Below, one piece after another: positions 8,615 through 64,000 of a stretch of 64,000 bases of DNA. The first letter of the stretch is position 1. Each line of letters starts with the position of its first letter. The position numbers and the translations under genes are program-made. Location: NCBI GenBank assembly GCA_951813575.1, contig OX638375.1, forward strand, positions 3,301,042 to 3,365,041, read 5' to 3'. The notes under the pieces were generated by a model. That model made no database searches. It saw nothing but the letters and a program-made list of their open reading frames with translations, and had not been told where the DNA came from. The stretch is from Candidatus Binatia bacterium (GTDB taxonomy: Bacteria > Desulfobacterota > Binatia > UBA9968 > JAJDTQ01).

Positions 8615-8659
8615 GCTTGGCCAGAATAAACACTTTCCGAGACCGCCGAAGGAGGGCTT

Positions 8660-10218: not shown

Positions 10219-10667
10219 CCAGCCGATGCACAAAGCTCCTGCTCTGTCTGGTCCTGTGGACCGCGGCATGGCCCGGCCTGTCCCGCGCGGATGTGGCGAA
10301 GGTCCGTTTCGCCGCCCTCGACGTCCACCTCGAGTCCGTCCAGCCCGTGGCCGCATGGCAGTTCGAGCTGTCGGAAACCGCCGGCCGGATGCGCGTGGTG
10401 GGCGTCGAGAACGGTGACAGTCCGGCATTTCCCAAGGCGCCCTACTACGACCGCAAGGCGGTCCACGACGGGCGCGCCGATCGTATCATCGTCGCCGATT
10501 TCAGCCTGAGGCCCGCGGCCGAGTTGCCGGCCGGCAAGGCGCGCATCGCCACCGTGCACGTCCGCATCACCGGCGACTCGGAGCCGGAATACCTCCTGCG
10601 GCTGGTCACGGCGGGCAACGCCGCGGGCAAGCCCGTACCGGCCTCCGTCCACCTCAACGTCCAGTGA
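10215..10667 (+). CDS. Small secreted protein, possible cohesin-like beta-sandwich
   Basis: 150 residues with a Sec signal (MTSRCTKLLLCLVLWTAAWPGLSRA) and a mature part made of alternating strands: AKVRFAALDVHLESVQPVAAWQFELSE, RMRVVGVENGD, DRIIVADFSL, KARIATVHVRITGD and EYLLRLVTAGNAAG. VAAWQFELSE and the ARIATVHVRI strand recall cohesin-fold proteins, and the preceding gene has a dockerin-like loop; the partnership is inference. ATG overlaps the previous stop (ATGA), so the two are coupled. Confidence 0.55.
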   Translation: MTSRCTKLLLCLVLWTAAWPGLSRADVAKVRFAALDVHLESVQPVAAWQFELSETAGRMRVVGVENGDSPAFPKAPYYDRKAVHDGRADRIIVADFSLRPAAELPAGKARIATVHVRITGDSEPEYLLRLVTAGNAAGKPVPASVHLNVQ

Positions 10668-15575: not shown

Positions 15576-15787
15576 GCTCGTCGGCGCCTCGTGGGAGGCG
15601 TTGAAGGCGAGGGTTGGGGTCGATGGGAACTGGACGGTCCGGCGTGGCGGCTTCGACCCTGACTTCGTGAACCACTAACACGTCCATTGCCGATCCACAA
15701 CGCGGCCGGAGCCGGGCATGGCGTCCATACGACGCGGCGTCTCTTCACCTCAGGCTCGGTCACTGTCCATAGTCTTGCGAATTTTAT

Positions 15788-40600: not shown

Positions 40601-40748
40601 GACGGGCCTCCTTTCCACAAGCAACGAACGGTACGCCAAGCACGACTCGCATCCACCTTGAGCATACTGACAGCACAGGGAATAGGCAACGCCCTCGAAC
40701 ACACAGGAACCCGCCTTCGGTCCTCCAGGCGATGCCGGCTCCGCTTGG

Positions 40749-40857
40749 CTCCACCTCCTCGTCATCCCGGGCTTGACCTCCTCGTCATCCCGGGCTCCAC
40801 CTCCTCGTCATCCCGGGCTCCACCTCCTCGTCATCCCGGGCTTGACCCGGGATCCAG
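40749..40857. repeat. Tandem 23-bp array ending in a REP unit
   Basis: Four head-to-tail copies of CTCCACCTCCTCGTCATCCC plus GGG, one carrying CTTGAC instead of CTCCAC, end in the palindrome CCCGGGCTTGACCCGGGATC. It fills most of the 306-base gap between the kinase-BON gene and the nuclease gene; no gene is seen there. Confidence 0.85.
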
Positions 40858-40906
40858 ACGGGGAAGGGAGGCGGCGGCCAGCCGCTCATGTTATGTGGGA
40901 TGGGCG

Positions 40907-44114: not shown

Positions 44115-45113
44115 ATGGCCACACCCAGAATCGCCCTGATCCTCACCGGCGGCACCATCGACTCCGTGGGCGCCGATCGCCTCGACCTCGCCTGGTACAT
44201 CGAGAACAACAAGCGGCTCGGCGACGGCGAGCTGGTGGGGTCGGTGCCCGAGTTGGCCTCCATCGCCCAGGTGGAGCAGGTGCCGTTCCGGCGGCTGCCG
44301 AGCCATGCGCTGGTGGACCGCGACTGGCTCGACCTGGCCGGGGTGCTGCACGGGATCTTCGAACGGGACGAGGCCGACGGCGCGGTCATCACCCACGGCA
44401 CCAACACCCTGGAAGAGACCGCCTACTTCCTGAACCTGGTGCTCAAGACCGACCGGCCGGTGGTGCTGGTGGGGTCCATGCGGCCGGCGACGGCGTTGGG
44501 CGCGGACGGCTACCTGAACCTGTTCAATGCCGTGCGGGTGGCGGCGGATCCGGATTCAAGCGGACACGGGGTGCTGGCGGTGATGAACGACCGGATCTTC
44601 GGCGCCCGGGACCTCACCAAGACCGCGACCTACCGCGTCGAGGCGTTCCAGGGAAGGGACCTGGGACCGCTGGGCTTCGCCGACGCCGACGGCCGGGTGC
44701 GCTACCATCACCGCACGGTCAAGCCGCACACCACCGACACGGAGTTCGACGTGACCGGGCTGGAGTCGTTGCCGCGGGTGGACGTGGTGGTGTCGCACGC
44801 GGGCGCGGACGGCGCCATGATCGACGCCTGCGTTGCCGCGGGCGCCAGGGGCATCGTGTGCGCCGCCACCGGGGCGGGCCGCCCCACGCCGGCTCAGGAC
44901 GAGGCCTTCGAGCGCGCCCGGGCAAAGGGTGTGATCCTGTGCATCGGCAGCCGGGTCGGTTCGGGGAGGGTGGCCCGCAGCCCGACGTTGGCCGAGCACG
45001 GTGTGGTCACCGCCGACAACCTCCAGCCCTGGAAGGCCCGGGTGCTGCTGGCGCTGGCCCTCAACGTCACCGAGGACCCGGACGCCATTCAGCGGATGTT
45101 CGATACGTATTGA
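44115..45113 (+). CDS. L-asparaginase-like amidohydrolase
   Basis: 332 residues. Nucleophile Thr is in ALILTGGTIDS (TGGT at 11-14). The second catalytic block is THGTNTLEETAYFLNL at 93-108, and Lys is in GARDLTKTATYR. In classical asparaginases the second block reads THGTDT; here Asp is replaced by Asn97. Either the enzyme uses an Asn variant seen in some subgroups or its specificity differs. AAGGA precedes ATG 44115. It is followed by a REP array and lies next to the TcuAB genes. Confidence 0.88.
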   Translation: MATPRIALILTGGTIDSVGADRLDLAWYIENNKRLGDGELVGSVPELASIAQVEQVPFRRLPSHALVDRDWLDLAGVLHGIFERDEADGAVITHGTNTLEETAYFLNLVLKTDRPVVLVGSMRPATALGADGYLNLFNAVRVAADPDSSGHGVLAVMNDRIFGARDLTKTATYRVEAFQGRDLGPLGFADADGRVRYHHRTVKPHTTDTEFDVTGLESLPRVDVVVSHAGADGAMIDACVAAGARGIVCAATGAGRPTPAQDEAFERARAKGVILCIGSRVGSGRVARSPTLAEHGVVTADNLQPWKARVLLALALNVTEDPDAIQRMFDTY

Positions 45114-45131
45114 GGCCCCCACGCCGCCCCT

Positions 45132-45446
45132 GGACCCCGGGTCAAGCCCGGGGTGACGGGAAGGGGGCCTGGACCCCGGGTCAAGCCCGGGGTGACGGCA
45201 AGGGGGCCTGGACCCCGGGTCAAGCCCGGGGTGACGGGAAGGGGGCCTGGACCCCGGGTCAAGCCCGGGGTGACGCGGAGGGGACCTGGACCCCGGGTCA
45301 AGCCCGGGGTGACGGGAAGGGGGCCTGGACCCCGGGTCAAGCCCGGGGTGACGGCAAGGTAGCAGCCCACAAAACGTCACCGCGGGCCACCTCCCTGTCA
45401 CCACCGGGTCACCTCTCTGTCACCCCGGGCTTGACCCGGGGTCCAG
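45132..45446. repeat. Six tandem REP units at a 39-bp period plus one inverted copy
   Basis: Full palindromes start at 45132, 45171, 45210, 45249, 45288 and 45327, joined by GGGAAGGGGGCCT-type linkers; an opposite-orientation copy is at 45419-45446. The array lies between two convergent genes. Long open frames inside are repeat artefacts. Confidence 0.95.
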
Positions 45447-45489
45447 AAGCGGTGTCGTGTGGAAGGGCAGATGCCCCCGGTGTCGCGCC

Positions 45490-49840: not shown

Positions 49841-49933
49841 GGAGGGGTGGCCGAGTGGTTTAAGGCACCGGTCTTGAAAATCGGCGTCCGCCTAACAAGT
49901 GGACCGCGAGTTCGAATCTCGCCCCCTCCGCCA
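49841..49933 (+). tRNA. tRNA-Ser(TGA)
   Basis: Acceptor GGAGGGG (49841-49847) pairs with CCCCTCC (49923-49929); discriminator G and an encoded CCA follow (49930-49933). The D-arm is GGCCGAGTGGTTTAAGGCAC, the anticodon loop CTTGAAA reads TGA, a long class II variable arm (GCGTCCGCCTAACAAGTGGA-type) is present, and the T-arm is GAGTTCGAATCTC. Confidence 0.97.
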
Positions 49934-50251: not shown

Positions 50252-50650
50252 CTACCGACGCCACGCCGCGCGCTGATCTTCCCAGGCAAGCGGCACATCG
50301 CGCAGGAGGTCGGCGAGGGTGATCCCCTTGGGCTGGCGCCCGTCGAGGATCGCGGCGACGATGTCGGGGGCGAGGCAGGTGAGCGGCAACAGGCGGCAGA
50401 CATAGGCAAGGGTCACGCCCTCCTGGGCGGCGAGGTCGGTGATGGATCTGGCCTCGCCGCTCTCGATCCGCCGCCGCCAGCGGTGGGCCTTCACCAGCGC
50501 CCGGACCATGGTTTCGTCGCGGGCGGGCTTCGCGGGTGCCGGAGCGGCGCCGTCGGGCGCGATGACGTATTTGCGCCCGCCGCGGCGCGTGATCCGTATC
50601 GGAATGCGGACGGTGACGGTGTCCACCTCCGGGCTCGTTCTGGTGTTCAT
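50252..50650 (-). CDS. Small HTH-containing protein of the recombinase module
   Basis: 132 residues from ATG 50650. VTVRIPIRITRRGGRKYVIAPDG is followed by MVRALVKAHRWRRRIESGEARSITDLAAQEGVTLAYVCRLLPLTCLAPDIVAAILDGRQPKGITLADLL, with a helix-turn-helix in DLAAQEGVTLAYVCRLL. This gene type regularly follows serine recombinases of this class. The start overlaps the recombinase stop (ATGA). Probable DNA-binding accessory factor; exact role unknown. Confidence 0.75.
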   Translation of the reverse strand: MNTRTSPEVDTVTVRIPIRITRRGGRKYVIAPDGAAPAPAKPARDETMVRALVKAHRWRRRIESGEARSITDLAAQEGVTLAYVCRLLPLTCLAPDIVAAILDGRQPKGITLADLLRDVPLAWEDQRAAWRR

Positions 50651-52032
50651 GCTACTGCCTCCAGGTTCGATGGGTCGCCCTCGGCCGTCTCCCCGACCGG
50701 TTCGGGCAGCAGCTCGCCGATGAGGCCGTGGAGCCCGGCAAGGCGGAGTTGGACGTCGACGGCGTCGGGCGCGACCGCGACGCCGGCGACCAGGAGCCGG
50801 GTGATGCGCGCCTGCTCGGCCGGGAACAGCTCCTCCCAGACCTCGTCGAGGCGGCCGAGCGCGTCGGTCGCCTCGCGTTCGTTGGCCGCCGCGTTCGCCC
50901 CTCCGGCAGCGCCGCAGGCGGCGAGGGTGCGGGCGGCGATCTCCGGCGCCTGGAGAAGCCCGCGCACCTGATCCGTGACCAGGCCCTCGATCTCCGATGC
51001 CGCGATCGAGCGCACGGGGCAGTCCGAGATGCCGCCCTTGGTGCGTTTCGAGCAGACGTAATAGCGATAGAGCCGCCCGTGCCGGCGGGTGTGGGTGGGC
51101 GTCATGGCCCCGCCGCAGGCGGCGCAGCGCAAGAGGCCCTTCAGCAAGGCCGGCGTTTGGGCACGGGTCCGGTTGGTGCGGGCCCGGCCGTTCTCGGTGA
51201 AGATGGCATGCACCTTGTCCCACAACGCGCGGGGCACGATGGCCTCGTGCTCGCCGGGGTAGGCCGTTCCCTTGTGCACCGCCTCGCCGAGATAGACCCG
51301 GTTGTGAAGCAGGCGGTAGAGCACGCCCTTGTCGAAGGGCCGGCCGGGGTGATGCCTGCCGGCCGCCGTGACCCAGGACTTCGTCGTCCGGCCCTCGGCC
51401 GCGAGCTCCTTCACCAGCACGGTCGCCGAGCCGCGGGCGATGAAGCGCTCGAAGATCTCGCGGACGAGAGCAGTCTCCCCGGCGTTGACCACCAGCTTGC
51501 GTTTCACCACGTCGTAGCCAAGCGGCGGTCGGCCGCCCATCCACATGCCCTTCTTGCGCGAGGCGGCGACCTTGTCGCGGATGCGCTCGGCGGTGACCTC
51601 GCGCTCGAACTGGGCGAAGGAGAGCAGGATGTTGAGGATCAGCCGGCCCATCGGGGTGGTGGTGTTGAACTGCTGGGTGATCGAGACGAAGGTGACGCCG
51701 TGGGTCTCGAACACCCCGATCAGCTTGGCGAAGTCCATGAGCGAGCGGCTCAGCCGATCGATCTTGTAGACCACCACGATGTCGATGCGGCCGGCCTCGA
51801 TGTCGGCGAGGAGGCGTTCGAGCGCCGGGCGCTCGAGGGTGGCGCCGGAGATACCGCCGTCGTCGTAGCGCTCGTCCATCGCCACCCAGCCCTCGGGCTT
51901 CTGGCTCGCGATGTAGGCCTCGCAGGCCTCGCGCTGGGCATCGAGGCTGTTGAACTCCTGCTCCAGGCCCTCCTCGCTCGACTTGCGGGTATAGACGGCG
52001 CAGCGGTGCTTACGGATCGGGGTCTTGCTCAT
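50647..52032 (-). CDS. Large serine recombinase
   Basis: 461 residues. The resolvase domain has the nucleophile in VYTRKSSEEG (Ser18 or Ser19), DDGGISGATLERPALERLLADIEAGRIDIVVVYKIDRLSRS and FEREVTAERIRDK. A recombinase domain (PPLGYDVVKRKLVVN... with RLLHNRVYLGEAVHKG) and a zinc-ribbon (LRCAACGGAMTPTHT...YYVCSKRTKGGISDCP) follow. The C-terminus is coiled. Start and stop overlap neighbouring genes by four bases, so four genes form one operon. It presumably mobilised the element. Confidence 0.95.
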   Translation of the reverse strand: MSKTPIRKHRCAVYTRKSSEEGLEQEFNSLDAQREACEAYIASQKPEGWVAMDERYDDGGISGATLERPALERLLADIEAGRIDIVVVYKIDRLSRSLMDFAKLIGVFETHGVTFVSITQQFNTTTPMGRLILNILLSFAQFEREVTAERIRDKVAASRKKGMWMGGRPPLGYDVVKRKLVVNAGETALVREIFERFIARGSATVLVKELAAEGRTTKSWVTAAGRHHPGRPFDKGVLYRLLHNRVYLGEAVHKGTAYPGEHEAIVPRALWDKVHAIFTENGRARTNRTRAQTPALLKGLLRCAACGGAMTPTHTRRHGRLYRYYVCSKRTKGGISDCPVRSIAASEIEGLVTDQVRGLLQAPEIAARTLAACGAAGGANAAANEREATDALGRLDEVWEELFPAEQARITRLLVAGVAVAPDAVDVQLRLAGLHGLIGELLPEPVGETAEGDPSNLEAVA

Positions 52033-52779: not shown

Positions 52780-53965
52780 TTATTTTTCCAATCGCTCGCG
52801 CAGCCGGGCGAGGGCGCGCCGGTAGCGCTTGCGCACGGCCGAGGGAGTCATGCCAAGACGGGCCGCTACTTCGTCCGAGGTCTCGCCGATAACGGCGATG
52901 GCGATGACGATGTCCGCGTCGTCGCCGATCCAGTCCCGCAGGCGCTCGCCGAGCCGTTCCGCGATCTCCCGCATGTGGGCGAGCACCGGCTCGGGCGTCG
53001 CGCGGGCGCCGACCCCGGCATAGATCGGCACCCGGGCTGTCGCCTCCGCGCGCTCGGGGACTTGAAAGACGGGGATGCCGAGCTGGCGCGCCTTGTCGAC
53101 CAGGTTGCCGGTGATGCCCGATCCGGGGAAAGCGATGACGCCCCTGGGCAACAGGTTCAGGAGCTCGTCGTTCCGCCTGAACGGCGCGGCCTTGCCGTGC
53201 GCGTTCCAGTCCGGGCGGCACACCACCTGGTCGACGCCCCGCGCCTCGGCCCAGCTCGCCGCGATCCTCTCGACGCCGGGGCTGCCGCCGTGCAGCAGGA
53301 CCATGTCTTCGTGCTTCGCCCGCGCCCGGTCGAGCGTGGTCCAGACGGCGGCAGCGTCCGCGACGTGCTTGCCGCCGGAGACGGCGACCAGGGTTCCCTC
53401 CGGCAGGTGCGCCCGGGTCTCGCGGTCCTTGCGGGCGCGGCGGAAGTCGCGGGCGCCAGACGTTGCCGGTCTCGACGCGGTACGCTTCCGCGGCAAAGTC
53501 GCGCATCGTCTCGAATGCGTCACGCCGGTCGCCGAGGTCCCTGGCGCGCTCGGTGAGGCGCTCCAGCTCGACGGCCTTCACTTCGGTGCCGTCCTGGGCG
53601 CGTTCGAGGTCGCGCATCTCAAGAACGATCTTGTCGGCCGTCCGGTCGATCCGGCCCGCCTGCGCGTGCAGCATGTTGACGAACCTCCACAGCAGGCTCT
53701 CGCGCTCGTCGGCGAGCTGGGTGCCGTCGGGGGCGACGTTCTCGATCAGCGTGTGGACGGTCTGCTCGAGGGCAGCGACGGCCTCGGCCTCATTCCAGAC
53801 GATGCGGTTGTCGGGCTCGTCGGGGCCGGGGGTGGCGCCGTAGAGGGCGGCGTGGTCGCAGATGGCGGCGGTGGGCGAGGCGTAGTGCCGGGGCTCGCGC
53901 TCGTCCCCGGACGACGTGTCGATGCCGGGGACGGTGTAGCCCGCTCTCGCGAAAGCGCGGCTCAT
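52780..53965 (-). pseudogene. DUF2493-family gene broken by a frameshifting deletion and joined to an HTH tail
   Basis: The N-terminal part in one frame (MSRAFARAGYTVPGIDT, YGATPGPDEPDNRIVW, EVKAVELERLTERARDLGDRRDAFETMRD, ending GNVWRPR) and the next part in another frame (ARDFRRARKDRETRAHLPEGTLVAVSGGK, DMVLLHGGSPGVERIAASWAEARGVDQ, KAAPFRRNDELLNLLPRGVIAFPGSGITGNL) are consecutive blocks of one DUF2493 protein. They meet at about 53460, with the usual linker of roughly 15 residues missing. After QLGIPVFQVPE comes a fragment YAGVGARATPEPVLAHM and then a sigma-70 region-4-like HTH (TSDEVAARLGMTPSAVRKRYRRALARLRERL). Several deletions seem to have joined three genes. Confidence 0.75.
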
Positions 53966-54049
53966 CGCCGTATCGGTGCTCTCGGGGCCGTCGCCGTCGC
54001 TCCCTGCCGACCGGGCGCCCGCCCCCCTTCGACAGGCTCGGAACAGGTT

Positions 54050-56428
54050 CTAGAACGCCACCCTGAGTTCGGCGGTGACGCCGTGGCCGGCGCCGCCGCC
54101 GCCGTACTGGCCCGTGTAGGCCGCACCGACCGTGGCCGTGTCCGCCAGGCTGGCCTCGATGCCGAGCTCGATATCCAGCGCGTCCTGCGCCACCGGCGCG
54201 CCCGCGACCGCGAAGCGCGCGCCGCCCGCCATCGAATGGGCCGACGACGGCGCGGTATCGCCGGAGGCGTGCCGCCAGCCCGCCATGCCGCGCAGACGCA
54301 CCGCGTCGTCCAGCGGCATCGAAGCGCGCAGGCCGAGCGTCGCGAAGGTCATGGCGTCGGTATCGGACGAGGCCGTCAGGGCCGCGCCGCCGCCGCTCTC
54401 GCGGAAGCCCTCGGTATCGAGACCGGTATGGGACACGCCGGCGAACGGCTCCAGGGTCAGGCCGCCGGCCTGTATCCGGTGGCCGGCCTCGGCAAACACC
54501 TGCCAGCTCCGGGCGTCGTAGCCGGCCGAAAGCCGTTGGGATACGTCGCCGATGCGGACCGACCGGCGCACGTCCACAGTATGGCCGGTATAGAGGGCGC
54601 CGGCGCCGAAGCGCAACGCGCCGGACTCGAGGCCGCCGTACAGGCCGACCGACCAGCTGTCGACCGAGCCGGAGGACCGGCGCGCGCGCTGGCGCAGCTC
54701 GGTCCGGCCGTAGCCGCCGAGCGCGCCGAGGCGCCAGCCCCCGTCCAGCGCGCGGTCGACGCCGAAGACCGCGCCGCGCCGGTCCGCCGTCATCCGCGCC
54801 GCGCCCGACGCGGCATCGGTCTCGCTCCGCCCGCCATGGCCTTCGATCCAGAAGCCGTCGCGGGCGCCGGGAGCGCCGAAGCGCGCCAGGCGGCGGTTGA
54901 CCGCCGCGGCCGTCGCCCGGCCGCCGTCAATCAGCGCGCCCTTGAGCGACGCATGCAGCTCGCCCGAAAGACCGTCGTAGGCGGACCGGACCTCCTCCCG
55001 CGCGGTCGCGGCCATGACATTCGTCACGATCGCGTTGTCGGCCGGCAGGCTGTCGAGGGCGCCGGCCACCGCCCGCTGGTTCGCCGTCGCGGCAAAGCTG
55101 CGGAAGGTGGCGCTATTCCTTGTGGAGGACAGCGTCACGGTGTCGTTGGTGTTGTCGTTGTTGCTGTCGCTGTAACCCAGACTAAGGTCGTAGAACACCG
55201 AGCCGACGATTTCGTCGAATTCGTCTTCGGTGTTTGAAAAGTTCCCGGATTCCAGGATCGTATAGTCGCCCTCGTGAAGGCCCACGACCCGCACCGTCCC
55301 GCCAAGCCCGGCCGTGCCGGTGACGGTGAGCTTGTCGCTGATGTTGTTCGGGCCGATCGTGACGGTAAAGCTGCTGCCTTGCTCGCCCACGAAATTGCCT
55401 GTCAGTTCGGTCGTCTGCACGGCGTCGGCGCCGCCCGGCGACAGCTCGCCCCAATTGGTGAAGGTATTGCCGCTGCCGAGATCCACCGCGGCGCCGGAGT
55501 TGAAGGTTGCGCCCGCATGGTTGTTGAAGGCGTTGCTCCCGCCGCCCAGATCGATGGTTCCGCCGTGCGTCAGCGCGCCGTCCGTAAACGTGCCGCTGGT
55601 CAATATGCCGTAATTGTCGATCGTCTCGGCGCCGCCGCCGCCCAGGACATCGGACGTGTCGCCGGAGATCCGTACCGTGGCACCCCTGCCGATCGTCAGA
55701 CTGTTGGTTACACCGTCGTCGAATTCGATGCCTGCGTACTGCTCGCTGACGATCGTCCCGCCACGCAGCGTGATGCGGATGTTGCCGTTCGCGGGCTTTG
55801 CATAAAGTCCTCGGCTGGTGCTGCCCTTGGTGGTGATATCGCCCGCCATTTCGATCGTAATGGTGCCAGGGGCGGTTACACGGATCCCGTCGCTGCCGGT
55901 TCCCCCGGTGGTGATATCGCCGGTTACCGTAGCCTTCACATCGCCGTTTTGTTGGGTTAAAAGTATCCCGTAGGCAAAATCGCCGTTTGTGGTGATTTTG
56001 TCTGCCAACACCGTAATATCGAGATTGCCTTGCATGATCGAATAAATTCCTTCGCCGCCGCCCCGGGTTGTGATGTCGAAGCCGCCGGTATCGATGACGA
56101 TTTCGAGGACGTCGGTGGAGCTGCCGAAAACAAACTTGAGTCCGTCCTTACCTGAACGCGGCGCGATGTCGCCGGTCAGGCCATGGACATTGATCCTGGT
56201 GTAAGTGTCGGTGCCTGCATTGACTTCCTCACCGCGCGAAAGGTCGCCGGTGCAGGTCATCGTCTTGCCCTCGGGGGTGCACTCTGCCCGCGCGGCGGGC
56301 CCGCCGGCGAAGAGCAGCGCCGCCGCGGCGGCCAGCGGCAGGAGCGCCCGCCGGAACCGGCGGAAATGTAAACCGGCGGCGCCGGCGCTGCGATTTTCGC
56401 AGCCGGCCGCACAACGGTCGTTCTGCAT
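54050..56428 (-). CDS. Autotransporter, copy 1 (mosaic passenger)
   Basis: 792 residues from ATG 56428 (AAAGGA upstream). A long signal peptide ends in GGPAARA near residue 48. The passenger consists of beta-helix-like repeats (for example GDITTGGTGSDGIRVTAPGT and GDITTKGSTSRGLYAKPANG). The C-terminal 268 residues, from GFWIEGHGG, form the autotransporter barrel, ending ELRVAF with terminal Phe. The first part of the passenger matches copy 3 and the later part, from about ETIDNYGILTSG onward, matches copy 2. No protease motif is seen; surface adhesin or display is likely. Confidence 0.92.
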   Translation of the reverse strand: MQNDRCAAGCENRSAGAAGLHFRRFRRALLPLAAAAALLFAGGPAARAECTPEGKTMTCTGDLSRGEEVNAGTDTYTRINVHGLTGDIAPRSGKDGLKFVFGSSTDVLEIVIDTGGFDITTRGGGEGIYSIMQGNLDITVLADKITTNGDFAYGILLTQQNGDVKATVTGDITTGGTGSDGIRVTAPGTITIEMAGDITTKGSTSRGLYAKPANGNIRITLRGGTIVSEQYAGIEFDDGVTNSLTIGRGATVRISGDTSDVLGGGGAETIDNYGILTSGTFTDGALTHGGTIDLGGGSNAFNNHAGATFNSGAAVDLGSGNTFTNWGELSPGGADAVQTTELTGNFVGEQGSSFTVTIGPNNISDKLTVTGTAGLGGTVRVVGLHEGDYTILESGNFSNTEDEFDEIVGSVFYDLSLGYSDSNNDNTNDTVTLSSTRNSATFRSFAATANQRAVAGALDSLPADNAIVTNVMAATAREEVRSAYDGLSGELHASLKGALIDGGRATAAAVNRRLARFGAPGARDGFWIEGHGGRSETDAASGAARMTADRRGAVFGVDRALDGGWRLGALGGYGRTELRQRARRSSGSVDSWSVGLYGGLESGALRFGAGALYTGHTVDVRRSVRIGDVSQRLSAGYDARSWQVFAEAGHRIQAGGLTLEPFAGVSHTGLDTEGFRESGGGAALTASSDTDAMTFATLGLRASMPLDDAVRLRGMAGWRHASGDTAPSSAHSMAGGARFAVAGAPVAQDALDIELGIEASLADTATVGAAYTGQYGGGGAGHGVTAELRVAF

Positions 56429-56518
56429 GTAACGATCCTTTCCCGGAAGAGTCGCGTCCGCTGAAATCGCCGCCCTGCCGGGCTTTGGTCGGACGCGAGG
56501 CAATTTGAATACAGATTG

Positions 56519-56547
56519 AGTATAGATACATATATTTTTAATAACAA
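56519..56547 (-). promoter_or_regulatory. Sigma-70-like promoter of autotransporter copy 1
   Basis: On the minus strand TTGTTA (56547-56542) and TATACT (56524-56519) are exactly 17 bases apart in a strikingly AT-rich patch. Start of transcription near 56511 would leave an 80-base leader before ATG 56428. The same arrangement is found before copies 2 and 3. Confidence 0.7.
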
Positions 56548-56679
56548 GGTATAAATTACGCGAACCGGATAAAATTATACGAACAGGCATCGGGCTTCGA
56601 ACCGGTCCGGTCCGGACGCACGCGCCGGCGGCGCCTGCCGACCGGGCGCCCGCCCCCCTCGGCAGGCTCGGGACAGGTT

Positions 56680-59079
56680 CTAGAACGCCACCCTGAGTTC
56701 GGCGGTGACGCCGTGGCCGGCGCCGCCGCCGTACCGGCCCGTGTAGGCCGCGCCGAACGTGGCCGTGTCCGCCAGGCTGGCCTCGATGCCGAGCTCGATA
56801 TCCAGCGCGTCCTGCGCCACCGGCGCGCCCGCGACCGCGAAGGGCGCGCCGCCCGCCATCGAATGGGCCGACGACGGCGCGGTATCGCCGGAGGCGTGCC
56901 GCCAGCCCGCCATGCCGCGCAGACGCACCGCGTCGTCCAGCGGCATCGAAGCGCGCAGGCCGAGCGTCGCGAAGGTCATGGCGTCGGTATCGGACGAGGC
57001 CGTCAGGGCCGCGCCGCCGCCGCTCTCGCGGAAGCCCTCGGTATCGAGACCGGTATGGGACACGCCGGCGAACGGCTCCAGGGTCAGGCCGCCGGCCTGT
57101 ATCCGGTGGCCGGCCTCGGCAAAGACCTGCCAGCTCCGGGCGTCGTAGCCGGCCGAAAGCCGTTGGGATACGTCGCCGATGCGGACCGACCGGCGCACGT
57201 CCACGGCATGGCCGGTATAGAGGGCGCCGGCGCCGAAGCGCAACGCGCCGGACTCGAGGCCGCCGTACAGACCGACCGACCGGCTGTCGACCGAGCCGGA
57301 GGACCGGCGCGCGCGCTGGCGCAGCTCGGTCCGGCCGTAGCCGCCGAGCGCGCCGAGGCGCCAGCCCCCGTCCAGCGCGCGGTCGACGCCGAAGACCGCG
57401 CCGCGCCGGTCCGCCGTCATCCGCGCCGCGCCCGACGCGGCATCGGTCTCGCTCCGCCCGCCATGGCCTTCGATCCAGAAGCCGTCGCGGGCGCCGGGAG
57501 CGCCGAAGCGCGCCAGGCGGCGGTTGACCGCCGCGGCCGTCGCCCGGCCGGCGTCCATCAGCGCCCCCTTGAGCGATGCATGCACCTCGCCCGAAAGACC
57601 GTCGTAGGCGGACCGGACCTCCTCCCGCGCGGTCGCGGCCATGAGATTCGTCACCATTGCGTTGTCGGCCGGCAGGCTGTCGAGGGCGCCGGCCACCGCC
57701 CGCTGGTTCGCCGTCGCGGCAAAGCTGCGGAAGGTGGCGCTATTCCTTGTGGAGGACAGCGTCACGGTGTCGTTGGTGTTGTCGCTGTTGCTGTCGCTGT
57801 AACCCAGACTAAGGTCGTAGAACACCGAGCCGACGATTTCGTCGAATTCGTCTTCGGTGTTTGAAAAGTTCCCGGATTCCAGGATCGTATAGTCGCCCTC
57901 GTGAAGGCCCACGACCCGCACCGTCCCGCCAAGCCCGGCCGTGCCGGTGACGGTGAGCTTGTCGCTGATGTTGTTCGGGCCGATCGTGACGGTAAAGCTG
58001 CTGCCTTGCTCGCCCACGAAATTGCCTGTCAGTTCGGTCGTCTGCACGGCGTCAGCGCCGCCCGGCGACAGCTCGCCCCAATTGGTGAAGGTATTGCCGC
58101 TGCCGAGATCCACCGCGGCGCCGGAGTTGAAGGTTGCGCCCGCATGGTTGTTGAAGGCGTTGCTCCCGCCGCCCAGATCGATGGTTCCGCCGTGCGTCAG
58201 CGCGCCGTCCGTAAACGTGCCGCTGGTCAATATGCCGTAATTGTCGATCGTCTCGGCGCCGCCGCCGCCCAGGACATCGTAATCGCTGCCGGAGATCCGT
58301 ACCGTGGCGCCCCTGTCGATCGTCAGACTGTTGGGTGAACCTTGGTTGAATTCGATGCCTACGTACCGCTTGCTGACGATCGTCCCGCCACGCAGCGTGA
58401 TGCGGATGTTGCCGTTCTCGGGTTTTGCATAAATTCCTATGGCGCCGTTGCCCGAGGTGTAGATATCGCCCGCCATTTCGATCGTAATGGTGTCAGGGGC
58501 GGTTACACGGATCCCGTCGCTGCCGGTTCCCCCAGTGGTGATATCGCCGGTTACCGTAGCCTTCACATCGCCGGTGTTTTGGGTTTCTATAAGCATCCCG
58601 TAGGCATAACTGCCGTTTGTGTCGATTTCGTTTACTAACACCGTAATATCGAAATTTTTGAAGGGCTGAGCATAAATTCCTATGCCGCCGCCCTTGGTGA
58701 CGATGTCGAAGCCGCCGGTATCGATGACGACGGTGATGACGTCGGGGGGGTTGCCGTAAAATTGGAGTCCGTCCCCTGAACCCGGCGCGATGTCGCCGGT
58801 CAGGCCATGGATATTGATCCCGGTGTAAGTGCCGGTGCCTCCAGAGACGGACACGCCGCCCGAAAGGTCGCCGGTGCAGGTCACCGTCTTGCCGTCGGCG
58901 GTGCACTGGTCCGACGGCGAAATCGACTGCGCCCGCGCGGCGGGCCCGCCGGCGAAGAGCAGCGCCGCCGCGGCGGCCAGCGGCAGGAGCGCCCGCCGGA
59001 ACCGGCGGAAACGTGAACCGCCGGCGCTGCGATTTTCGCAGCCGGCCGCACCGCCGGCCGCGCAACGGTCGTTCTGCAT
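56680..59079 (-). CDS. Autotransporter, copy 2
   Basis: 799 residues from ATG 59079. Signal peptide as in copy 1 with an added GGAAG and a mature start QSISPSDQCTADG. The first passenger half differs most among the copies (GGIGIYAQPFKNFDITVLVNEIDTNGSYAYGML; GDIYTSGNGAIGIYAKPENG), while the segment ETIDNYGILTSGTFTDGALTHGG to SNTEDEFDEIVG is the same as copy 1. The barrel is nearly identical to copy 3 (YTGRYGGGAGHG). Own promoter at 59170-59198. Same predicted role as copy 1. Confidence 0.92.
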   Translation of the reverse strand: MQNDRCAAGGAAGCENRSAGGSRFRRFRRALLPLAAAAALLFAGGPAARAQSISPSDQCTADGKTVTCTGDLSGGVSVSGGTGTYTGINIHGLTGDIAPGSGDGLQFYGNPPDVITVVIDTGGFDIVTKGGGIGIYAQPFKNFDITVLVNEIDTNGSYAYGMLIETQNTGDVKATVTGDITTGGTGSDGIRVTAPDTITIEMAGDIYTSGNGAIGIYAKPENGNIRITLRGGTIVSKRYVGIEFNQGSPNSLTIDRGATVRISGSDYDVLGGGGAETIDNYGILTSGTFTDGALTHGGTIDLGGGSNAFNNHAGATFNSGAAVDLGSGNTFTNWGELSPGGADAVQTTELTGNFVGEQGSSFTVTIGPNNISDKLTVTGTAGLGGTVRVVGLHEGDYTILESGNFSNTEDEFDEIVGSVFYDLSLGYSDSNSDNTNDTVTLSSTRNSATFRSFAATANQRAVAGALDSLPADNAMVTNLMAATAREEVRSAYDGLSGEVHASLKGALMDAGRATAAAVNRRLARFGAPGARDGFWIEGHGGRSETDAASGAARMTADRRGAVFGVDRALDGGWRLGALGGYGRTELRQRARRSSGSVDSRSVGLYGGLESGALRFGAGALYTGHAVDVRRSVRIGDVSQRLSAGYDARSWQVFAEAGHRIQAGGLTLEPFAGVSHTGLDTEGFRESGGGAALTASSDTDAMTFATLGLRASMPLDDAVRLRGMAGWRHASGDTAPSSAHSMAGGAPFAVAGAPVAQDALDIELGIEASLADTATFGAAYTGRYGGGAGHGVTAELRVAF

Positions 59080-59169
59080 GTAACGATCCTTTCCCGGAAG
59101 AGTCGCGTCCGCTGAAATCGCCGCCCTGCCGGGCTTTGGTCGGACGCGAGGCAATTTGAATACAGATTG

Positions 59170-59198
59170 AGTATAGATACATATATTTTGAATAACAA
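59170..59198 (-). promoter_or_regulatory. Sigma-70-like promoter of autotransporter copy 2
   Basis: Minus-strand TTGTTA (59198-59193), 17-base spacer, TATACT (59175-59170). The spacer differs from copy 1 by one base. The leader to ATG 59079 is about 80 bases. Confidence 0.7.
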
Positions 59199-59329
59199 GG
59201 TATAAATTACCGAATCAGATAAAATTATACGAACAGGCATCGGGCTTCGAACCGGTCCGGTCCGGACGCACGCGCCGGCGGCGCCTGCCGACCGGGCGCC
59301 CGCCCCCCTCGGCAGGCTCGGGACAGGTT

Positions 59330-61708
59330 CTAGAACGCCACCCTGAGTTCGGCGGTGACGCCGTGGCCGGCGCCGCCGCCGTACCGGCCCGTGTAGGCCG
59401 CACCGAACGTGGCCGTGTCCGCCAGGCTGGCCTCGATGCCGAGCTCGATATCCAGCGCGTCCTGCGCCACCGGCGCGCCCGCGACCGCGAAGCGCGCGCC
59501 GCCCGCCATCGAATGGGCCGACGACGGCGCGGTATCGCCGGAGGCGTGCCGCCAGCCCGCCATGCCGCGCAGACGCACCCCGTCGTCCAGCGGCATCGAA
59601 GTGCGCAGGCCGAGCGTCGCGAAGGTCATGGCGTCGGTATCGGACGAGGCCGTCAGGGCCGCGCCGCCGCCGCTCTCGCGGAAGCCCTCGGTATCGAGAC
59701 CGGTATGGGACACGCCGGCGAACGGCTCCAGGGTCAGGCCGCCGGCCTGTATCCGGTGGCCGGCCTCGGCAAACACCTGCCAGCTCCGGGCGTCGTAGCC
59801 GGCCGAAAGCCGTTGGGATACGTCGCCGATGCGGACCGACCGGCGCACGTCCACGGCATGGCCGGTATAGAGGGCGCCGGCGCCGAAGCGCAACGCGCCG
59901 GACTCGAGGCCGCCGTACAGACCGACCGACCGGCTGTCGACCGAGCCGGAGGACCGGCGCGCGCGCTGGCGCAGCTCGGTCCGGCCGTAGCCGCCGAGCG
60001 CGCCGAGGCGCCAGCCCCCGTCCAGCGCGCGGTCGACGCCGAAGACCGCGCCGCGCCGGTCCGCCGTCATCCGCGCCGCGCCCGACGCGGCATCGGTCTC
60101 GCTCCGCCCGCCATGGCCTTCGATCCAGAAGCCGTCGCGGGCGCCGGGAGCGCCGAAGCGCGCCAGGCGGCGGTTGACCGCCGCGGCCGTCGCCCGGCCG
60201 GCGTCCATCAGCGTCCCCTTGAGCGATGCATGCACCTCGCCCGAAAGACCGTCGTAGGCGGCCCGGACCTCCTCCCGCTCGGTCGCGGCCATGAGATTCG
60301 TCACCATTGCGTTGTCGGCCGGCAGGCTGTCGAGGGCGCCGGCCACCGCCCGCTGGTTCGCCGTCGCGGCAAAGCTGCGGAAGGTGGCGCTATTCCTTGT
60401 GGAGGACAGCGTCACGGTGTCGTTGGTGTTGTCGCTGTTGCTGTCGCTGTAACCCAGACTGCGGTCGTAGAACAACGAGCCGACGATTTCGTCGAATTCG
60501 TCTTCGGTGTCTGAAATGCTCCCGGCTACCAGGATCGTATAGGTGCCCTCGTGAAGGCCCACGACCCGCACCGTGCCGCCAAGGAAGGCAACGCCCTCGA
60601 CTTGGAGCAGGTCGGCGGTCAAGTTCGGGCCGATCGTGACGGTAAAGGTGCCGTATTCCCTGACGCCCTGATCGTCGGATATGAAGTTCCGGAAATCGTC
60701 GGTGAGCGCCGTCCTCAGCACCGCGTCCGCGCCGCCCGGCGACAGGTCGCCCGCATTGGACAAGATATTGCCGCTGCCGAGATCCACCGCGCCGGAATTG
60801 AAGGTTGCGCCCGCATGGTTGTTGAAGGCGTTGCTCCCGCCGCCCAGATGGATGTTGCCCAGAGCCGTCAATATGCCGAAATTGTCGATCGTCTCGTTGC
60901 CGGCGCCGCCCAGGATATCGGACGTGCCGCCGGAGATCCGTACCGTGGCGCCCCTGCCGATCGTCAGACTGTTGGTTACACCGTCGTCGAATTCGATGCC
61001 TGCGTACTGCTCGCTGACGATCGTCCCGCCACGCAGCGTGATGCGGATGTTGCCGTTCGCGGGTTTTGCATAAAGTCCTCGGCTGTCGCTGCCCTTGGTG
61101 GTGATATCGCCCGCCATTTCGATCGTAATGGTGCCAGGGGCGGTTACACGGATCCCGTCGCTGCCACTTCCCCAGGTGGTGATATCGCCGGTTACCGTAG
61201 CCTTCACATCGCCGTTTTGTTGGGTTTCTAAAAGTATCCCGTAGGCAAAATCGCCGTTTGTGGTGATTTTGTCTGCCAACACCGTAATATCGAGATTGCC
61301 TTGCATGTTCGCATAAATTCCTTCGCCGCCGCCCCGGGTTGTGATGTCGAAGCCGCCGGCATCGATGACGATTTCGAGGACGTCGGTGGGGGTGCCGGAA
61401 AATTTGAGTCCGTCCTTACCTGAACCCGGCGTGATGTTGCGGGTCAGGCCATGGATATTGATCGTGGTGTACGTGCCTTGGCCTGCACGGACATCCTCAC
61501 CGCCCGAAAGGTCGCCGGTGCAGGTCACCGTCTTGCCCTCGGCGGTGCACTCTGCCCGCGCGGCGGGCCCGCCGGGGAAGAGCAGCGCCGCCGCGGCGGC
61601 CAGCGGCAGGAGCGCCCGCCGGAACCGGCGGAAATGTAAACCGGCGGCGCCGGCGCTGCGATTTTCGCAGCCGGCCGCACCGCCGGCCGCGCAACGGTCG
61701 TTCTGCAT
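59330..61708 (-). CDS. Autotransporter, copy 3
   Basis: 792 residues from ATG 61708. Signal peptide has FPGGPAARA. The passenger first half shares ITTRGGGEGIYANMQGNLDITVLADKITTNGDFAYGILL with copy 1. The second half is unique: GILTALGNIHLGGG, GNILSNAGDLSPGGADAVLRTALTDDFRNFISDDQGVREYG and PNLTADLLQVEGVAFLGG. The barrel matches copy 2 with a few changes. Own promoter at 61799-61827. It is separated from copy 4 by an IS3 element. Confidence 0.92.
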   Translation of the reverse strand: MQNDRCAAGGAAGCENRSAGAAGLHFRRFRRALLPLAAAAALLFPGGPAARAECTAEGKTVTCTGDLSGGEDVRAGQGTYTTINIHGLTRNITPGSGKDGLKFSGTPTDVLEIVIDAGGFDITTRGGGEGIYANMQGNLDITVLADKITTNGDFAYGILLETQQNGDVKATVTGDITTWGSGSDGIRVTAPGTITIEMAGDITTKGSDSRGLYAKPANGNIRITLRGGTIVSEQYAGIEFDDGVTNSLTIGRGATVRISGGTSDILGGAGNETIDNFGILTALGNIHLGGGSNAFNNHAGATFNSGAVDLGSGNILSNAGDLSPGGADAVLRTALTDDFRNFISDDQGVREYGTFTVTIGPNLTADLLQVEGVAFLGGTVRVVGLHEGTYTILVAGSISDTEDEFDEIVGSLFYDRSLGYSDSNSDNTNDTVTLSSTRNSATFRSFAATANQRAVAGALDSLPADNAMVTNLMAATEREEVRAAYDGLSGEVHASLKGTLMDAGRATAAAVNRRLARFGAPGARDGFWIEGHGGRSETDAASGAARMTADRRGAVFGVDRALDGGWRLGALGGYGRTELRQRARRSSGSVDSRSVGLYGGLESGALRFGAGALYTGHAVDVRRSVRIGDVSQRLSAGYDARSWQVFAEAGHRIQAGGLTLEPFAGVSHTGLDTEGFRESGGGAALTASSDTDAMTFATLGLRTSMPLDDGVRLRGMAGWRHASGDTAPSSAHSMAGGARFAVAGAPVAQDALDIELGIEASLADTATFGAAYTGRYGGGAGHGVTAELRVAF

Positions 61709-61798
61709 GTAACGATCCTTTCCCGGAAGAGTCGCGTCCGCTGAAATCGCCGCCCTGCCGGGCTTTGGTCGGACGCAAGACAATTTGAATACAGATTG

Positions 61799-61827
61799 AG
61801 TATAGATACATAACTTTTTAATAACAA
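61799..61827 (-). promoter_or_regulatory. Sigma-70-like promoter of autotransporter copy 3
   Basis: Minus-strand TTGTTA (61827-61822), 17-base spacer, TATACT (61804-61799). The IS3 element begins 56 bases upstream of the -35, so the promoter itself is intact. Confidence 0.7.
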
Positions 61828-61951
61828 GGGATAAATTACGCGAACCGGATAAAATTACACGAACAGGCATCGGGCTTCGAACTGAGGTGGTCCCGGAAAA
61901 ACGGACAGGTTGCTAAGGTGTATTCCACCGACTGAAGGAGGAGGGATACGC

Positions 61952-62233
61952 ATGAGCACACGACGAAGGTTCAGCGGAGACTTCAAGGCGAAGGTGGCGC
62001 TGGAGGCGCTGCGTGGGGACAAGACGGTCCAGGAGATCGCGGCCCGGCACAAGGTCCATCCGAACCAGGTGAGCACCTGGAAGCAGCGAGCGGTGGAGGG
62101 GATGAAGGAGTTGCTCTCCAAGGGTGCGGAGCGGGCACGTGGGGACCACGAGGGGGAGGTTCGGGACCTGCACGCGAAGATCGGGGAGTTGACGGTGGAG
62201 CGGGATTTTTTGGCCAAAGGGCTCAAGTGGTGA
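61952..62233 (+). CDS. IS3-family OrfA
   Basis: 93 residues from ATG 61952 (GAAGGAGGAGGG upstream). RRFSGDFKAKVALEALRGDKTVQEIAARHKVHPNQVSTWKQRAVEGM is the Tnp_1 helix-turn-helix; a coiled segment EVRDLHAKIGELTVERDFLAKGL follows. It ends in TGA overlapping the orfB start. Confidence 0.93.
   Translation: MSTRRRFSGDFKAKVALEALRGDKTVQEIAARHKVHPNQVSTWKQRAVEGMKELLSKGAERARGDHEGEVRDLHAKIGELTVERDFLAKGLKW
62206..62212 (+). other. Programmed -1 frameshift slippery heptamer (T TTT TTG)
   Basis: Within orfA codons GAT TTT TTG, 20 bases before its stop. OrfB is in the -1 frame and open from here, so slippage gives the OrfAB fusion. Confidence 0.7.
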
Positions 62234-63153
62234 GCCGGGACAAGCGCCGGGCGATGATCGAGCCCGGCCATCCCAAGCTCAGCTTGAGCCGTCAATGCCA
62301 TCTGCTTCGAGTGAGTCGATCCTCTGTGTACCACAGGCCCAAGGGCGAGAGCGCGGAGAATCTGGCGTTGATGCGCCGGATCGACAAGCTGTTCCTGGAG
62401 TACCCCTTCTACGGCAGCCGCCAGATGGTCCGCCATCTGTGGCGGGAGCGAGTCCGAGTGGGTCGTCACCGGGTGCGGCGTCTGATGCGCCTGATGGGGC
62501 TCCAGGCCATCTACCAAGCGCCGCGGACCACCCGACCGCACCCCGAGCAGCGGGTTTACCCCTATATGCTCAAGGGCGTCGCCATCGAACGGCCCAATCA
62601 CGTGTGGACCGCAGATATAACCTACATCCCGGTCCAGAAGGGCTTCCTGTACCTGGTGGCGGTCATGGACTGGGCCACCCGCCGGGTGCTCTCCTGGCGG
62701 CTGTCGAACACCCTCGATGCCCGCTTCTGTACAGACGCCCTCTCAGAGGCTCTGGAACGCTACGGCCCTCCGGAGATCTTCAACACCGACCAGGGCAGCC
62801 AGTTCACCAGCCTGGAGTTCACCTCCGTGCTCAAGGACGCCGGCATTGCCATCTCCATGGACGGAAGGGGCCGGTGCATGGACAACATCTTCATCGAGCG
62901 CCTGTGGCGCTCGCTGAAGTACGAGGCTGTCTACCTGCACGAGCTCTCGGACGGCTTCGCGGCCCTGCGGGTCATCGCCCGGTGGGTGGCCTTCTACAAC
63001 AACCAAAGGCCTCATTCCGCCCTCGCCGGCTCCACCCCACAGGAGGCCTACGAACGAGGACTCCAGAGGCAGGCCGGACCTCACACCCCGCCCGCCCCTC
63101 TGCCAGTTCCATCCGAACACGAAGACGTGATAAACGGGACCTTGGCGGCATGA
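62227..63153 (+). CDS. IS3-family OrfB transposase
   Basis: 308 residues, GTG start (62227 or 62230). HTH_21 region EYPFYGSRQMVRHLWRERVRVGRHRVRRLMRLMGLQAIY is followed by the rve core with Asp in VWTADITYIPV, Asp in IFNTDQGSQFTS and Glu in DNIFIERLWRSLKYE. The end AFYNNQRPHSALAGSTPQEAYE is typical. Intact; active form expected through frameshifting. Confidence 0.95.
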   Translation: MVSRDKRRAMIEPGHPKLSLSRQCHLLRVSRSSVYHRPKGESAENLALMRRIDKLFLEYPFYGSRQMVRHLWRERVRVGRHRVRRLMRLMGLQAIYQAPRTTRPHPEQRVYPYMLKGVAIERPNHVWTADITYIPVQKGFLYLVAVMDWATRRVLSWRLSNTLDARFCTDALSEALERYGPPEIFNTDQGSQFTSLEFTSVLKDAGIAISMDGRGRCMDNIFIERLWRSLKYEAVYLHELSDGFAALRVIARWVAFYNNQRPHSALAGSTPQEAYERGLQRQAGPHTPPAPLPVPSEHEDVINGTLAA

Positions 63154-63297
63154 TCGAACGTCTGGAATACACCTTAACTCAGCCGCCTCCCTGTCCTACA
63201 AACCAGGACCACCTCACACCGGTCCGGTCCGGACGCACGCGCCGCCGGCGCCTGCCGACCGGGCGCCCGCCCCCCTTCGACAGGCTCGGAACAGGTT

Positions 63298-64000
63298 CTA
63301 GAACGCCACCCTGAGTTCGGCGGTGAGGCCGTGGCCGGCGCCGCCGCCGCCGTACTGGCCCGTGTAGGCCGCACCGACCGTGGCCGTGTCCGTCAAGCCG
63401 GCCTCGATGCCGAGCTCGATATCCACCGCGTACTGCGCCACCGGCGCGCCCGCGACCGCGAAGGGCGCGCCGCCCGCCATCGAATGGGCCGACGACGGCG
63501 CGGTATCGCCGGAGGCGTGCCGCCAGCCCGCCATGCCGCGCAGACGCACCCCGTCGTCCAGCGACATCGAAGCGCGCAGGCCGAGCGTCGCGAAGGTCAT
63601 GGCGTCGGTATCGGACGAGGCCGTCAGGGCCGCGCCGCCGCCGCTCTCGCGGAAGCCCTCGGTATCGAGACCGGTATGGGACACGCCGGCGAACGGCTCC
63701 AGGGTCAGGCCGCCGGCCTGTATCCGGTGGCCGGCCTCGGCAAAGACCTGCCAGCTCCGGGCGTCGTAGCCGGCCGAAAGCCGTTGGGATACGTCGCCGA
63801 TGCGGACCGACCGGCGCACGTCCACGGCATGGCCGGTATAGAGGGCGCCGGCGCCGAAGCGCAACGCGCCGGACTCGAGGCCGCCGTACAGGCCGACCGA
63901 CCGGCTGTCGACCGAGCCGGAGGACCGGCGCGCGCGCTGGCGCAGCTCGGTCCGGCCGTAGCCGCCGAGCGCGCCGAGGCGCCAGCCCCCGTCCAGCGCG
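63298..64000 (-). CDS. Autotransporter, copy 4 (C-terminal barrel only in window)
   Basis: The TAG stop is at 63298-63300 and the frame stays open to the window end, covering about 233 residues of the barrel. It has changes of its own (AQYAVDIELGIEAGLTDTATVGAAYTGQYGGGGAGHGLTAELRVAF) and shares the QYGGGG form with copy 1. The passenger and start lie beyond base 64000. Confidence 0.9.
   Translation of the reverse strand, partial: ALDGGWRLGALGGYGRTELRQRARRSSGSVDSRSVGLYGGLESGALRFGAGALYTGHAVDVRRSVRIGDVSQRLSAGYDARSWQVFAEAGHRIQAGGLTLEPFAGVSHTGLDTEGFRESGGGAALTASSDTDAMTFATLGLRASMSLDDGVRLRGMAGWRHASGDTAPSSAHSMAGGAPFAVAGAPVAQYAVDIELGIEAGLTDTATVGAAYTGQYGGGGAGHGLTAELRVAF

What the first reader, a model, noticed from the sequence alone, without database searches (positions are those of the whole stretch)
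54050..61708. Autotransporter copy 1 is a recombinant of copy 2-like and copy 3-like sequence
From the signal peptide to about the RISG(D)TSD region, copy 1 follows copy 3 (for example ITTNGDFAYGILL, KPANGNIRITL, DDGVTNSLTIGRG). From ETIDNYGILTSG through SNTEDEFDEIVGSVFYDLSL it is the same as copy 2, while copy 3 has unrelated sequence. The switch falls near 55620-55665.
Basis: seen in the sequence. Interest (0 to 1): 0.7.

Follow-up and report, generated by a model that had tools for sequence, protein, structure and literature searches.

The report
Mosaic tandem array of autotransporter genes
Neighbouring copies of a bacterial surface-protein gene have swapped pieces with one another, so each copy shows a patchwork exposed part on a nearly identical membrane anchor; this is a known way of varying surface proteins, found here in an unnamed bacterium.

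Summary
The switch is real. Copy 1 (c1) matches copy 3 (c3) at 455 of 466 bases from 56118 to 55653, then copy 2 (c2) at 468 of 469 bases from 55652 to 55184; the junction lies between 55653 and 55648. A fourth copy (c4) runs past the window's end. A second switch lies at 55184-55158. The four copies give all three possible trees in three successive blocks (13|24, 12|34, 14|23), each preferred by AU tests. Three derived indels group c1+c3, c1+c2 and c2+c3. The beta-barrel is almost identical in all copies (dS 0.009-0.018), passengers are far more diverged, and c2's N-terminal passenger shows dN/dS about 2.3. The proteins are classical type Va autotransporters with a beta-helix passenger. Best reading: repeated homologous recombination inside a tandem array, keeping the ends alike and reshuffling diversified passengers. 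Which copy received which tract is not settled: the close pairs are (1,3), (1,2) and (2,3), so "c1 is the recombinant" is one of several equal readings. Known kind; moderate interest.

The parts
54050..56428 (-). autotransporter copy 1 (c1), 792 aa from the shared start MQNDRC; mosaic
   Evidence: PF03797 E 1.7e-58 (scanned on the longer ORF 54050-56590)
55653..56118 (-). c3-like tract of c1 (455 of 466 bases equal to c3; c2 83.9%)
55648..55653 (-). first switch, c3-like to c2-like; codon 259-260, in a predicted loop between strands 250-254 and 267-272
55184..55652 (-). c2-like tract of c1 (468 of 469 bases equal to c2; c3 83.5%, c4 79.8%)
55158..55184 (-). second switch, from tree 12|34 to tree 14|23; codons about 415-424, near the end of the predicted beta-helix
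54050..55157 (-). linker and beta-barrel of c1; barrel dS 0.009-0.018 among all four copies; informative sites mostly c1+c4 against c2+c3
56680..59079 (-). autotransporter copy 2 (c2), 799 aa; its N-terminal passenger is the most changed of c1-c3 (dN/dS about 2.3)
59330..61708 (-). autotransporter copy 3 (c3), 792 aa
63298..64000 (-). 3' part of autotransporter copy 4 (c4), 969 aa, whole gene at 63298-66207 in window numbering (L008:11340-14249); 8 matches of a repeat motif in the passenger
56429..56679 (-). spacer c2|c1, with a promoter-like pair (56547-56519)
59080..59329 (-). spacer c3|c2, nearly identical to c2|c1, same promoter-like pair (59198-59170)
61709..61882 (-). upstream part of spacer c4|c3 with the same promoter-like pair (61827-61799)
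61883..63216 (+). 1334-base IS element (orfA HTH_Tnp_1, orfB rve; IS3-like) set into the c4|c3 spacer; without it the spacer is 3 bases longer than the others at that point
50647..52032 (-). serine recombinase (Resolvase, Recombinase, Zn_ribbon_recom), next to tRNA-Ser 49841-49933; context only

Best explanation
Four head-to-tail genes for classical (type Va) autotransporters have exchanged segments with one another by homologous recombination (gene conversion and/or unequal crossing-over) using their near-identical 5' ends and beta-barrel ends as homology. The result is copies whose exposed beta-helix passengers are different patchworks on an almost unchanged secretion unit. c1 carries a c3-related N-terminal passenger, a c2-identical C-terminal passenger and a linker/tail grouping with c4. 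Shown: the mosaic, two switches, incompatible trees, near-identical barrels, excess amino-acid change in c2's N-terminal passenger. Inferred: that exchange happened inside this array rather than by import, that c1 was the recipient, and that the passengers are shown on the cell surface and diversified by selection from a partner, host, phage or predator.
For: Breakpoint and runs tests (14 runs in 85 quartet-informative sites, minimum 38 in 100,000 shuffles; coding part alone 13 runs of 73, minimum 28). AU tests: block 56286-55653 rejects the other two trees at 0.010; block 55652-55184 at 5.9e-5; block 55183-54053 at 0.030 and 0.046. Indels polarised by L044 and L046: loss of about seven codons after the signal peptide shared by c1+c3, a ten-codon insertion shared by c1+c2, loss of one glycine codon near the C-terminus shared by c2+c3. 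Synonymous distance: c3-c4 about 50 of 156 sites in the N-passenger against 3 of 222 in the barrel, Fisher 2e-18 (counts rounded), not explicable by selection on protein alone. Spacers c2|c1 and c3|c2 almost identical, c1's 3' end like c4's for about 47 bases. No other copies in the genome beyond the array. Fold: AlphaFold model mean pLDDT 83.0; barrel matches AaaA, NalP, EstA (Z 28-31), passenger matches pertactin (Z 19.9, rmsd 4.4, 331 aligned).
Against: Direction of transfer is not determined. Import of whole passengers from unseen relatives is not excluded: passenger GC3 is 71-77% against about 92% in the barrel and 92-95% in three other window genes. AU support for the third block is modest, the 3' flank alone does not reject the other two trees clearly (0.105 and 0.048), and 56286-56119 alone rejects no tree (0.14). 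No strain-level data, so no evidence that exchange is frequent or ongoing. No reads were seen, so a mis-assembled array cannot be ruled out.
Confidence: 0.8

Rival explanations
1. c1 is not the recipient: c2 received the 55652-55184 tract from c1 (or c3 received the N-terminal tract from c1), so c1 is the donor.
For: The close pairs are (1,3), (1,2), (2,3), which is symmetric among c1-c3; c2 and c3 share spacers and linker at 99%, so c2 can be read as a c3 sister overwritten in its passenger.
Against: The c3-like and c2-like tracts of c1 abut within five bases, which one junction in c1 explains in a single event; but outside such tracts the sites would also have to choose sides, so this is weak.
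Confidence: 0.4
2. Passengers were imported from other strains or species by horizontal transfer, and the barrels then kept alike by conversion within the array.
For: Lower GC3 in passengers; relatives of the passenger in a Porisulfidus MAG (L044, 45% over 188-514 of c1) and in Nitratireductor (L046, 34%); no full-length relative in 8 of 8 congeners at E 1e-3; a serine recombinase beside the array that is absent from 8 of 8 congeners at 1e-30.
Against: c1-c2 identity of 468 of 469 bases over the middle tract and 97.6% c1-c3 point to exchange between copies now in the array; low GC3 can also come from the passenger's own codon and residue bias.
Confidence: 0.3
3. Assembly artefact: reads of near-identical repeats were joined wrongly and made a chimeric c1.
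For: Three of the copies share more than 1 kb at 98-99% identity, and the organism's reads were not available.
Against: One contig of 4.21 Mb; all four reading frames intact; the c3-like tract differs from c3 at 11 of 466 bases and the tail from c2 and c3 at c4-like sites, so c1 is not a simple splice of the assembled copies.
Confidence: 0.07
4. No recombination: uneven selection (conserved barrel, fast passenger) alone makes the profile.
For: Passengers of autotransporters are generally less conserved than barrels (general knowledge).
Against: Synonymous sites show the same contrast, and tree and indel groupings conflict between blocks.
Confidence: 0.01
5. A diversity-generating retroelement mutates the passengers.
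For: The genome has a reverse transcriptase with an adjacent template-like repeat, and c2 changes fall mostly in codon positions 1 and 2 (29 and 24 of 66, against 13 at position 3).
Against: No array segment matches the template repeat; changed sites are not adenine-specific in c1/c3 (A 23, G 21, C 18, T 4); changes are spread over about 600 bases.
Confidence: 0.02

Closest known systems
Classical (type Va) autotransporters, Pfam PF03797 barrel with beta-helix passenger (pertactin, AIDA-I, EstA, NalP, AaaA as structural yardsticks)
   Same: Signal-peptide-like N-terminus, beta-helix passenger, helical linker, barrel of about 260 residues ending in F
   Different: Four tandem mosaic copies; passenger has no Pfam family at E 0.001 (c1 and c3 scanned)
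badA island of Bartonella henselae (PMC8859334; abstract lines and passages seen by term search)
   Same: Adhesin gene flanked by related copies, domain reshuffling by recombination inside an island with a mobile-element gene
   Different: BadA is a trimeric autotransporter (type Vc) with repeat stalk and pseudogene flanks; here four intact type Va genes with PF03797 barrels
Mosaic type Va adhesins of Fusobacterium nucleatum (fap2, radD, cmpA; PMC10995627; passages seen by term search)
   Same: Autotransporter adhesins with recombination-derived mosaic structure and variable copy number
   Different: There the exchange is inferred between strains and subspecies; here between copies lying side by side in one genome
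Single-copy relatives: uncultured candidatus Porisulfidus MAG (L044) and Nitratireductor sp. XY-223 (L046)
   Same: Barrel 51% and 44% identical; passenger relatives, L044 with the same repeat type as c4
   Different: One barrel hit per fetched locus, no array

Membership tests
Classical type Va autotransporter (PF03797) | C-terminal PF03797 barrel above the curated cut-off | tested here: met
   c1 198.8 bits and c3 192.3 bits against 26; all four copies in the genome search, 194.8-203.2 bits
Classical type Va autotransporter (PF03797) | Passenger, helical linker and 12-strand barrel in one chain | tested here: met
   Model of c1: strands from 49 to 437, helices 442-515, then barrel strands from 525 to 791, pLDDT mean 83.0; barrel rows of AaaA, NalP, EstA, EspP and AIDA-I at Z 24.7-30.6 among the best 11; strand number of the barrel not counted by a tool
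Classical type Va autotransporter (PF03797) | Beta-helix passenger | tested here: met
   Pertactin 1dab Z 19.9, 331 residues aligned over 39-439, rmsd 4.4
Classical type Va autotransporter (PF03797) | Export signal and actual surface display | not testable with these tools
   A hydrophobic N-terminal stretch is visible (residues about 28-48 of c1); no signal-peptide predictor or experiment
Concerted evolution / gene conversion in a tandem array | Synonymous distance between copies differs by segment | tested here: met
   Barrel dS 0.009-0.018; N-passenger dS 0.036-0.42
Concerted evolution / gene conversion in a tandem array | Conflicting trees along the gene with defined switches | tested here: met
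Concerted evolution / gene conversion in a tandem array | Donor and recipient known | tested here: inconclusive
   Close pairs are symmetric among c1-c3
Antigenic-variation system (expressed locus fed by silent copies) | Silent, promoterless or truncated donor cassettes | tested here: not met
   All four copies have intact frames, c1-c3 each have a promoter-like pair upstream, and no further copies were found by DNA search with the c1 passenger
Antigenic-variation system (expressed locus fed by silent copies) | Variation among cells or strains | not testable with these tools
   No second strain with the array; 8 of 8 congeners lack a match to c1 at E 1e-3
Diversity-generating retroelement target | Variable repeat with adenine-specific differences from a template repeat | tested here: not met
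   No array match at the template repeat; differences not adenine-specific

The most novel reading that the evidence does not exclude
The array is a working surface-variation device: near-identical promoters, signal regions and barrels act as fixed homology arms between which passenger modules, split at about codon 260 and codon 420, are reshuffled among intact, separately promoted copies, while selection drives amino-acid change in the N-terminal module. Variation would thus come from exchange between expressed paralogues rather than from silent cassettes.
Probability: 0.25. Interest if true: 0.6.

Novelty: new member of a known kind. Interest (0 to 1): 0.4.

Why it matters
Mosaic adhesin genes are well documented in pathogens. 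This is a compact case in an unnamed bacterium: four intact side-by-side copies, all three trees in one gene, near-identical barrels and dN/dS above 2 in one passenger segment. If frequent, it would point to pressure on the exposed surface (host, phage or predator), and the sharp switch points would show which passenger modules can be exchanged and still be exported.

Tried and rejected
Single-breakpoint model: rejected, second switch at 55184-55158. Selection only: rejected by synonymous contrast. DGR targeting the array: rejected, see rivals. Other genomic copies as silent cassettes: none found (only short chance-like hits of up to 49 bases outside the array). Viral origin: 0 relatives in viral contigs. 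Close relatives in the class: at 1e-20 only the own genome, 1 of 148 genomes searched. First genome-contig scan with the four-copy alignment found none (its patterns fell in the N-terminus and passenger); the second, with the barrel, gave 50 loci. First structure model from four sequences was poor (mean pLDDT 45.5); the second with 20 rows was used. In the second alignment 20 rows were used: four copies and 16 of the 50 loci, 14 of these 16 cut to their last 805 residues. Attachment repeats of the tRNA-Ser 3' end: none in 66 kb around it, so no island border is claimed. 16S lookup to name the organism: no match in the held genome. Polarising every switch with L044/L046: not possible beyond the three indels. 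The dN/dS is Nei-Gojobori with no correction for base bias, and other segments do not show it (c1-c3 at 106-258: dS 0.027, dN 0.024; barrel near 1 or below). The literature search was short; no claim is made that this is absent from print.

Full report
What is there. On the minus strand lie four head-to-tail genes, not three: c1 54050-56428, c2 56680-59079, c3 59330-61708 and c4 63298-66207 in window numbering, the last one cut by the window's end and read from the own genome. All four start with MQNDRC and have no internal stop. The genome is one contig of 4.21 Mb and holds no further copies. Between c3 and c4 a 1334-base IS3-like element sits in the spacer; several other copies of it end at the same bases elsewhere in the genome. 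Without it, the c4|c3 spacer aligns with the other two and is three bases longer at the insertion point.

Is the switch real. Yes. Of 184 sites where c2 and c3 differ and c1 equals one, the best split is between 55653 and 55648; none of 20,000 shuffles gave as few runs (20) or as large an excursion. A segmentation of c1, c2 and c3 gave: all alike 56588-56286; all about equally different 56285-56119; c1-c3 close 56118-55653; c1-c2 close 55652-55184; all alike 55183-54043; c2-c3 close after the stop. Identities: c1-c3 455 of 466 in the third segment, c1-c2 468 of 469 in the fourth. The third and fourth segments' synonymous distances do not differ (about 3 of 115 against 1 of 117, Fisher 0.37), so the two could be of one age; the nonsynonymous ones do (8 of 344 against 1 of 348, 0.02).

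More than one switch. With c4 added there are 85 sites that favour one of the three trees: 35 for 12|34, 28 for 13|24, 22 for 14|23, in three blocks in that gene with 14 runs, where 100,000 shuffles gave at least 38. AU tests reject the two other trees in 56286-55653 (0.010 each), 55652-55184 (5.9e-5 each) and, less firmly, 55183-54053 (0.030, 0.046). Within the first block, 56286-56119 alone rejects nothing (0.14), and the 3' flank alone gives 0.105 and 0.048. Three indels, read against L044 (Porisulfidus MAG) and L046 (Nitratireductor), are derived and incompatible: a loss after the signal peptide in c1+c3, a ten-codon insertion in c1+c2, a one-codon loss near the C-terminus in c2+c3 (read by eye).

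Who received what. Any switch among four sequences pairs c1 with someone, so the tree pattern alone cannot name the recombinant. By closeness, the exchanged pairs are c1-c3, c1-c2 and c2-c3, which is symmetric. The abutting of the c3-like and c2-like tracts of c1 within five bases favours a single junction made in c1, but weakly. I give c1 as recipient about even odds.

Ends alike, middles apart. dS in the barrel (codons 525-792) is 0.009-0.018 for all six pairs, whereas in codons 49-258 it is 0.036 (c1-c3), 0.09 (c1-c2, c2-c3) and 0.36-0.42 (with c4). Since these are synonymous changes, conservation of the protein cannot explain it; the barrels have been homogenised or the passengers replaced. 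Passenger GC3 is 71-77% against about 92% in the barrel and 92-95% in three window genes, which leaves room for import. In codons 49-258, c1-c2 and c2-c3 have dN 0.20 against dS 0.09 (84 nonsynonymous and 13 synonymous changes for c1-c2; 0 of 5000 bootstraps with dN at or below dS; Fisher 0.002 on rounded counts). c1-c3 does not show it significantly (0.11), nor do most other pairs and segments.

What the proteins are. PF03797 is matched by c1 and c3 and found in all four copies. A model of c1 built with 20 sequences (mean pLDDT 83.0, pTM 0.66) shows beta strands from 49 to 437, helices 442-515 and a barrel to the C-terminus. The barrel aligns with AaaA, NalP and EstA (Z 30.6, 29.4, 28.6) and the passenger with pertactin (1dab, Z 19.9, rmsd 4.4, 331 residues). 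The first switch (codon 259-260) falls in a loop between strands 250-254 and 267-272; the shared insertion is the model's low-confidence loop near 283-285; the second switch (about 415-424) lies near the end of the beta-helix. This is a reading of one model, without a test that switches avoid strands. c4 has 8 matches of a G(D/N)IxTxG-type repeat motif in the passenger, c1 and c3 three, c2 two, L044 thirteen. A promoter-like pair (TTGTTA, 17, TATACT) precedes each of c1-c3, and these are the only three hits in 53900-64000, where shuffles gave a mean of 1.2.

Relatives and surroundings. Barrel relatives: 50 loci in named genomes, best 51% to an uncultured candidatus Porisulfidus MAG, then mostly Rhizobiales and a few Burkholderiales at 35-49% (order names are my knowledge of the listed genera). 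In these 50 loci, 49 have one barrel hit and one (L049) has two at about 40%; several loci are short, so arrays could be missed. Congeners carry PF03797 proteins (9 of 9 genomes, own included) but none matches c1 at E 1e-3 (0 of 8). Beside the array are tRNA-Ser 49841-49933, a serine recombinase (50647-52032), a DUF2924 gene, and on the other side a transposase remnant, a macro-domain/2OG-oxygenase gene, SSB and a Toprim/DUF7146 gene. That looks like mobile-element cargo, but no border repeats were found.

How it most likely works. The four proteins would be exported by Sec, their barrels inserted by Bam and their beta-helices displayed (established for the family, not tested here). RecA-type exchange between near-identical ends and within passengers then makes new patchworks (inferred). 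What the exposed parts bind, and what selects for change, is unknown; adhesion to a partner is my guess.

Comparison. The nearest published cases I looked at are the badA island of Bartonella henselae (PMC8859334, passages) and the mosaic type Va adhesins of Fusobacterium nucleatum (PMC10995627, passages). The principle is known; this is a new member.

Noticed in passing
L108:8578-15655 (own genome C1:3693577-3700654, outside the window): A probable diversity-generating retroelement: reverse transcriptase frame L108:9182-10432 with IGNLTSQ (motif meaning recalled), a repeat at 10244-10368 overlapping its 3' end, and a copy at 15531-15655 whose 18 mismatches are at A in the first copy in 16 cases; a second copy at 8573-8697 (31 mismatches, 17 at A). 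Both copies end large frames with RVLRGGSW...GFRIARTL.
   Followed up: partly
window 61883-63216: IS3-like element with six further full-span copies at 89-99% identity in the genome, plus fragments.
   Followed up: partly
window 45090-45398: Six 39-base tandem units with a palindrome-like core (CCCCGGGTCAAGCCCGGGG) and an inverted partner at 45404-45455.
   Followed up: no
window 40747-40863: 23-base tandem units (CTCCTCGTCATCCCGGGCT...) between genes.
   Followed up: no
L008:14589-15200 (-), window numbering about 66547-67158: C-terminal remnant of a DDE transposase (PF13701) just upstream of c4.
   Followed up: no
L008:14817-16220 (+): One frame joining a Macro domain and a 2OG-Fe(II) oxygenase (AlkB-like) domain.
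   Followed up: no
L044:7406-10807: Porisulfidus MAG autotransporter with thirteen matches of the c4-type repeat motif, a possible source or sister of the c4 passenger.
   Followed up: partly
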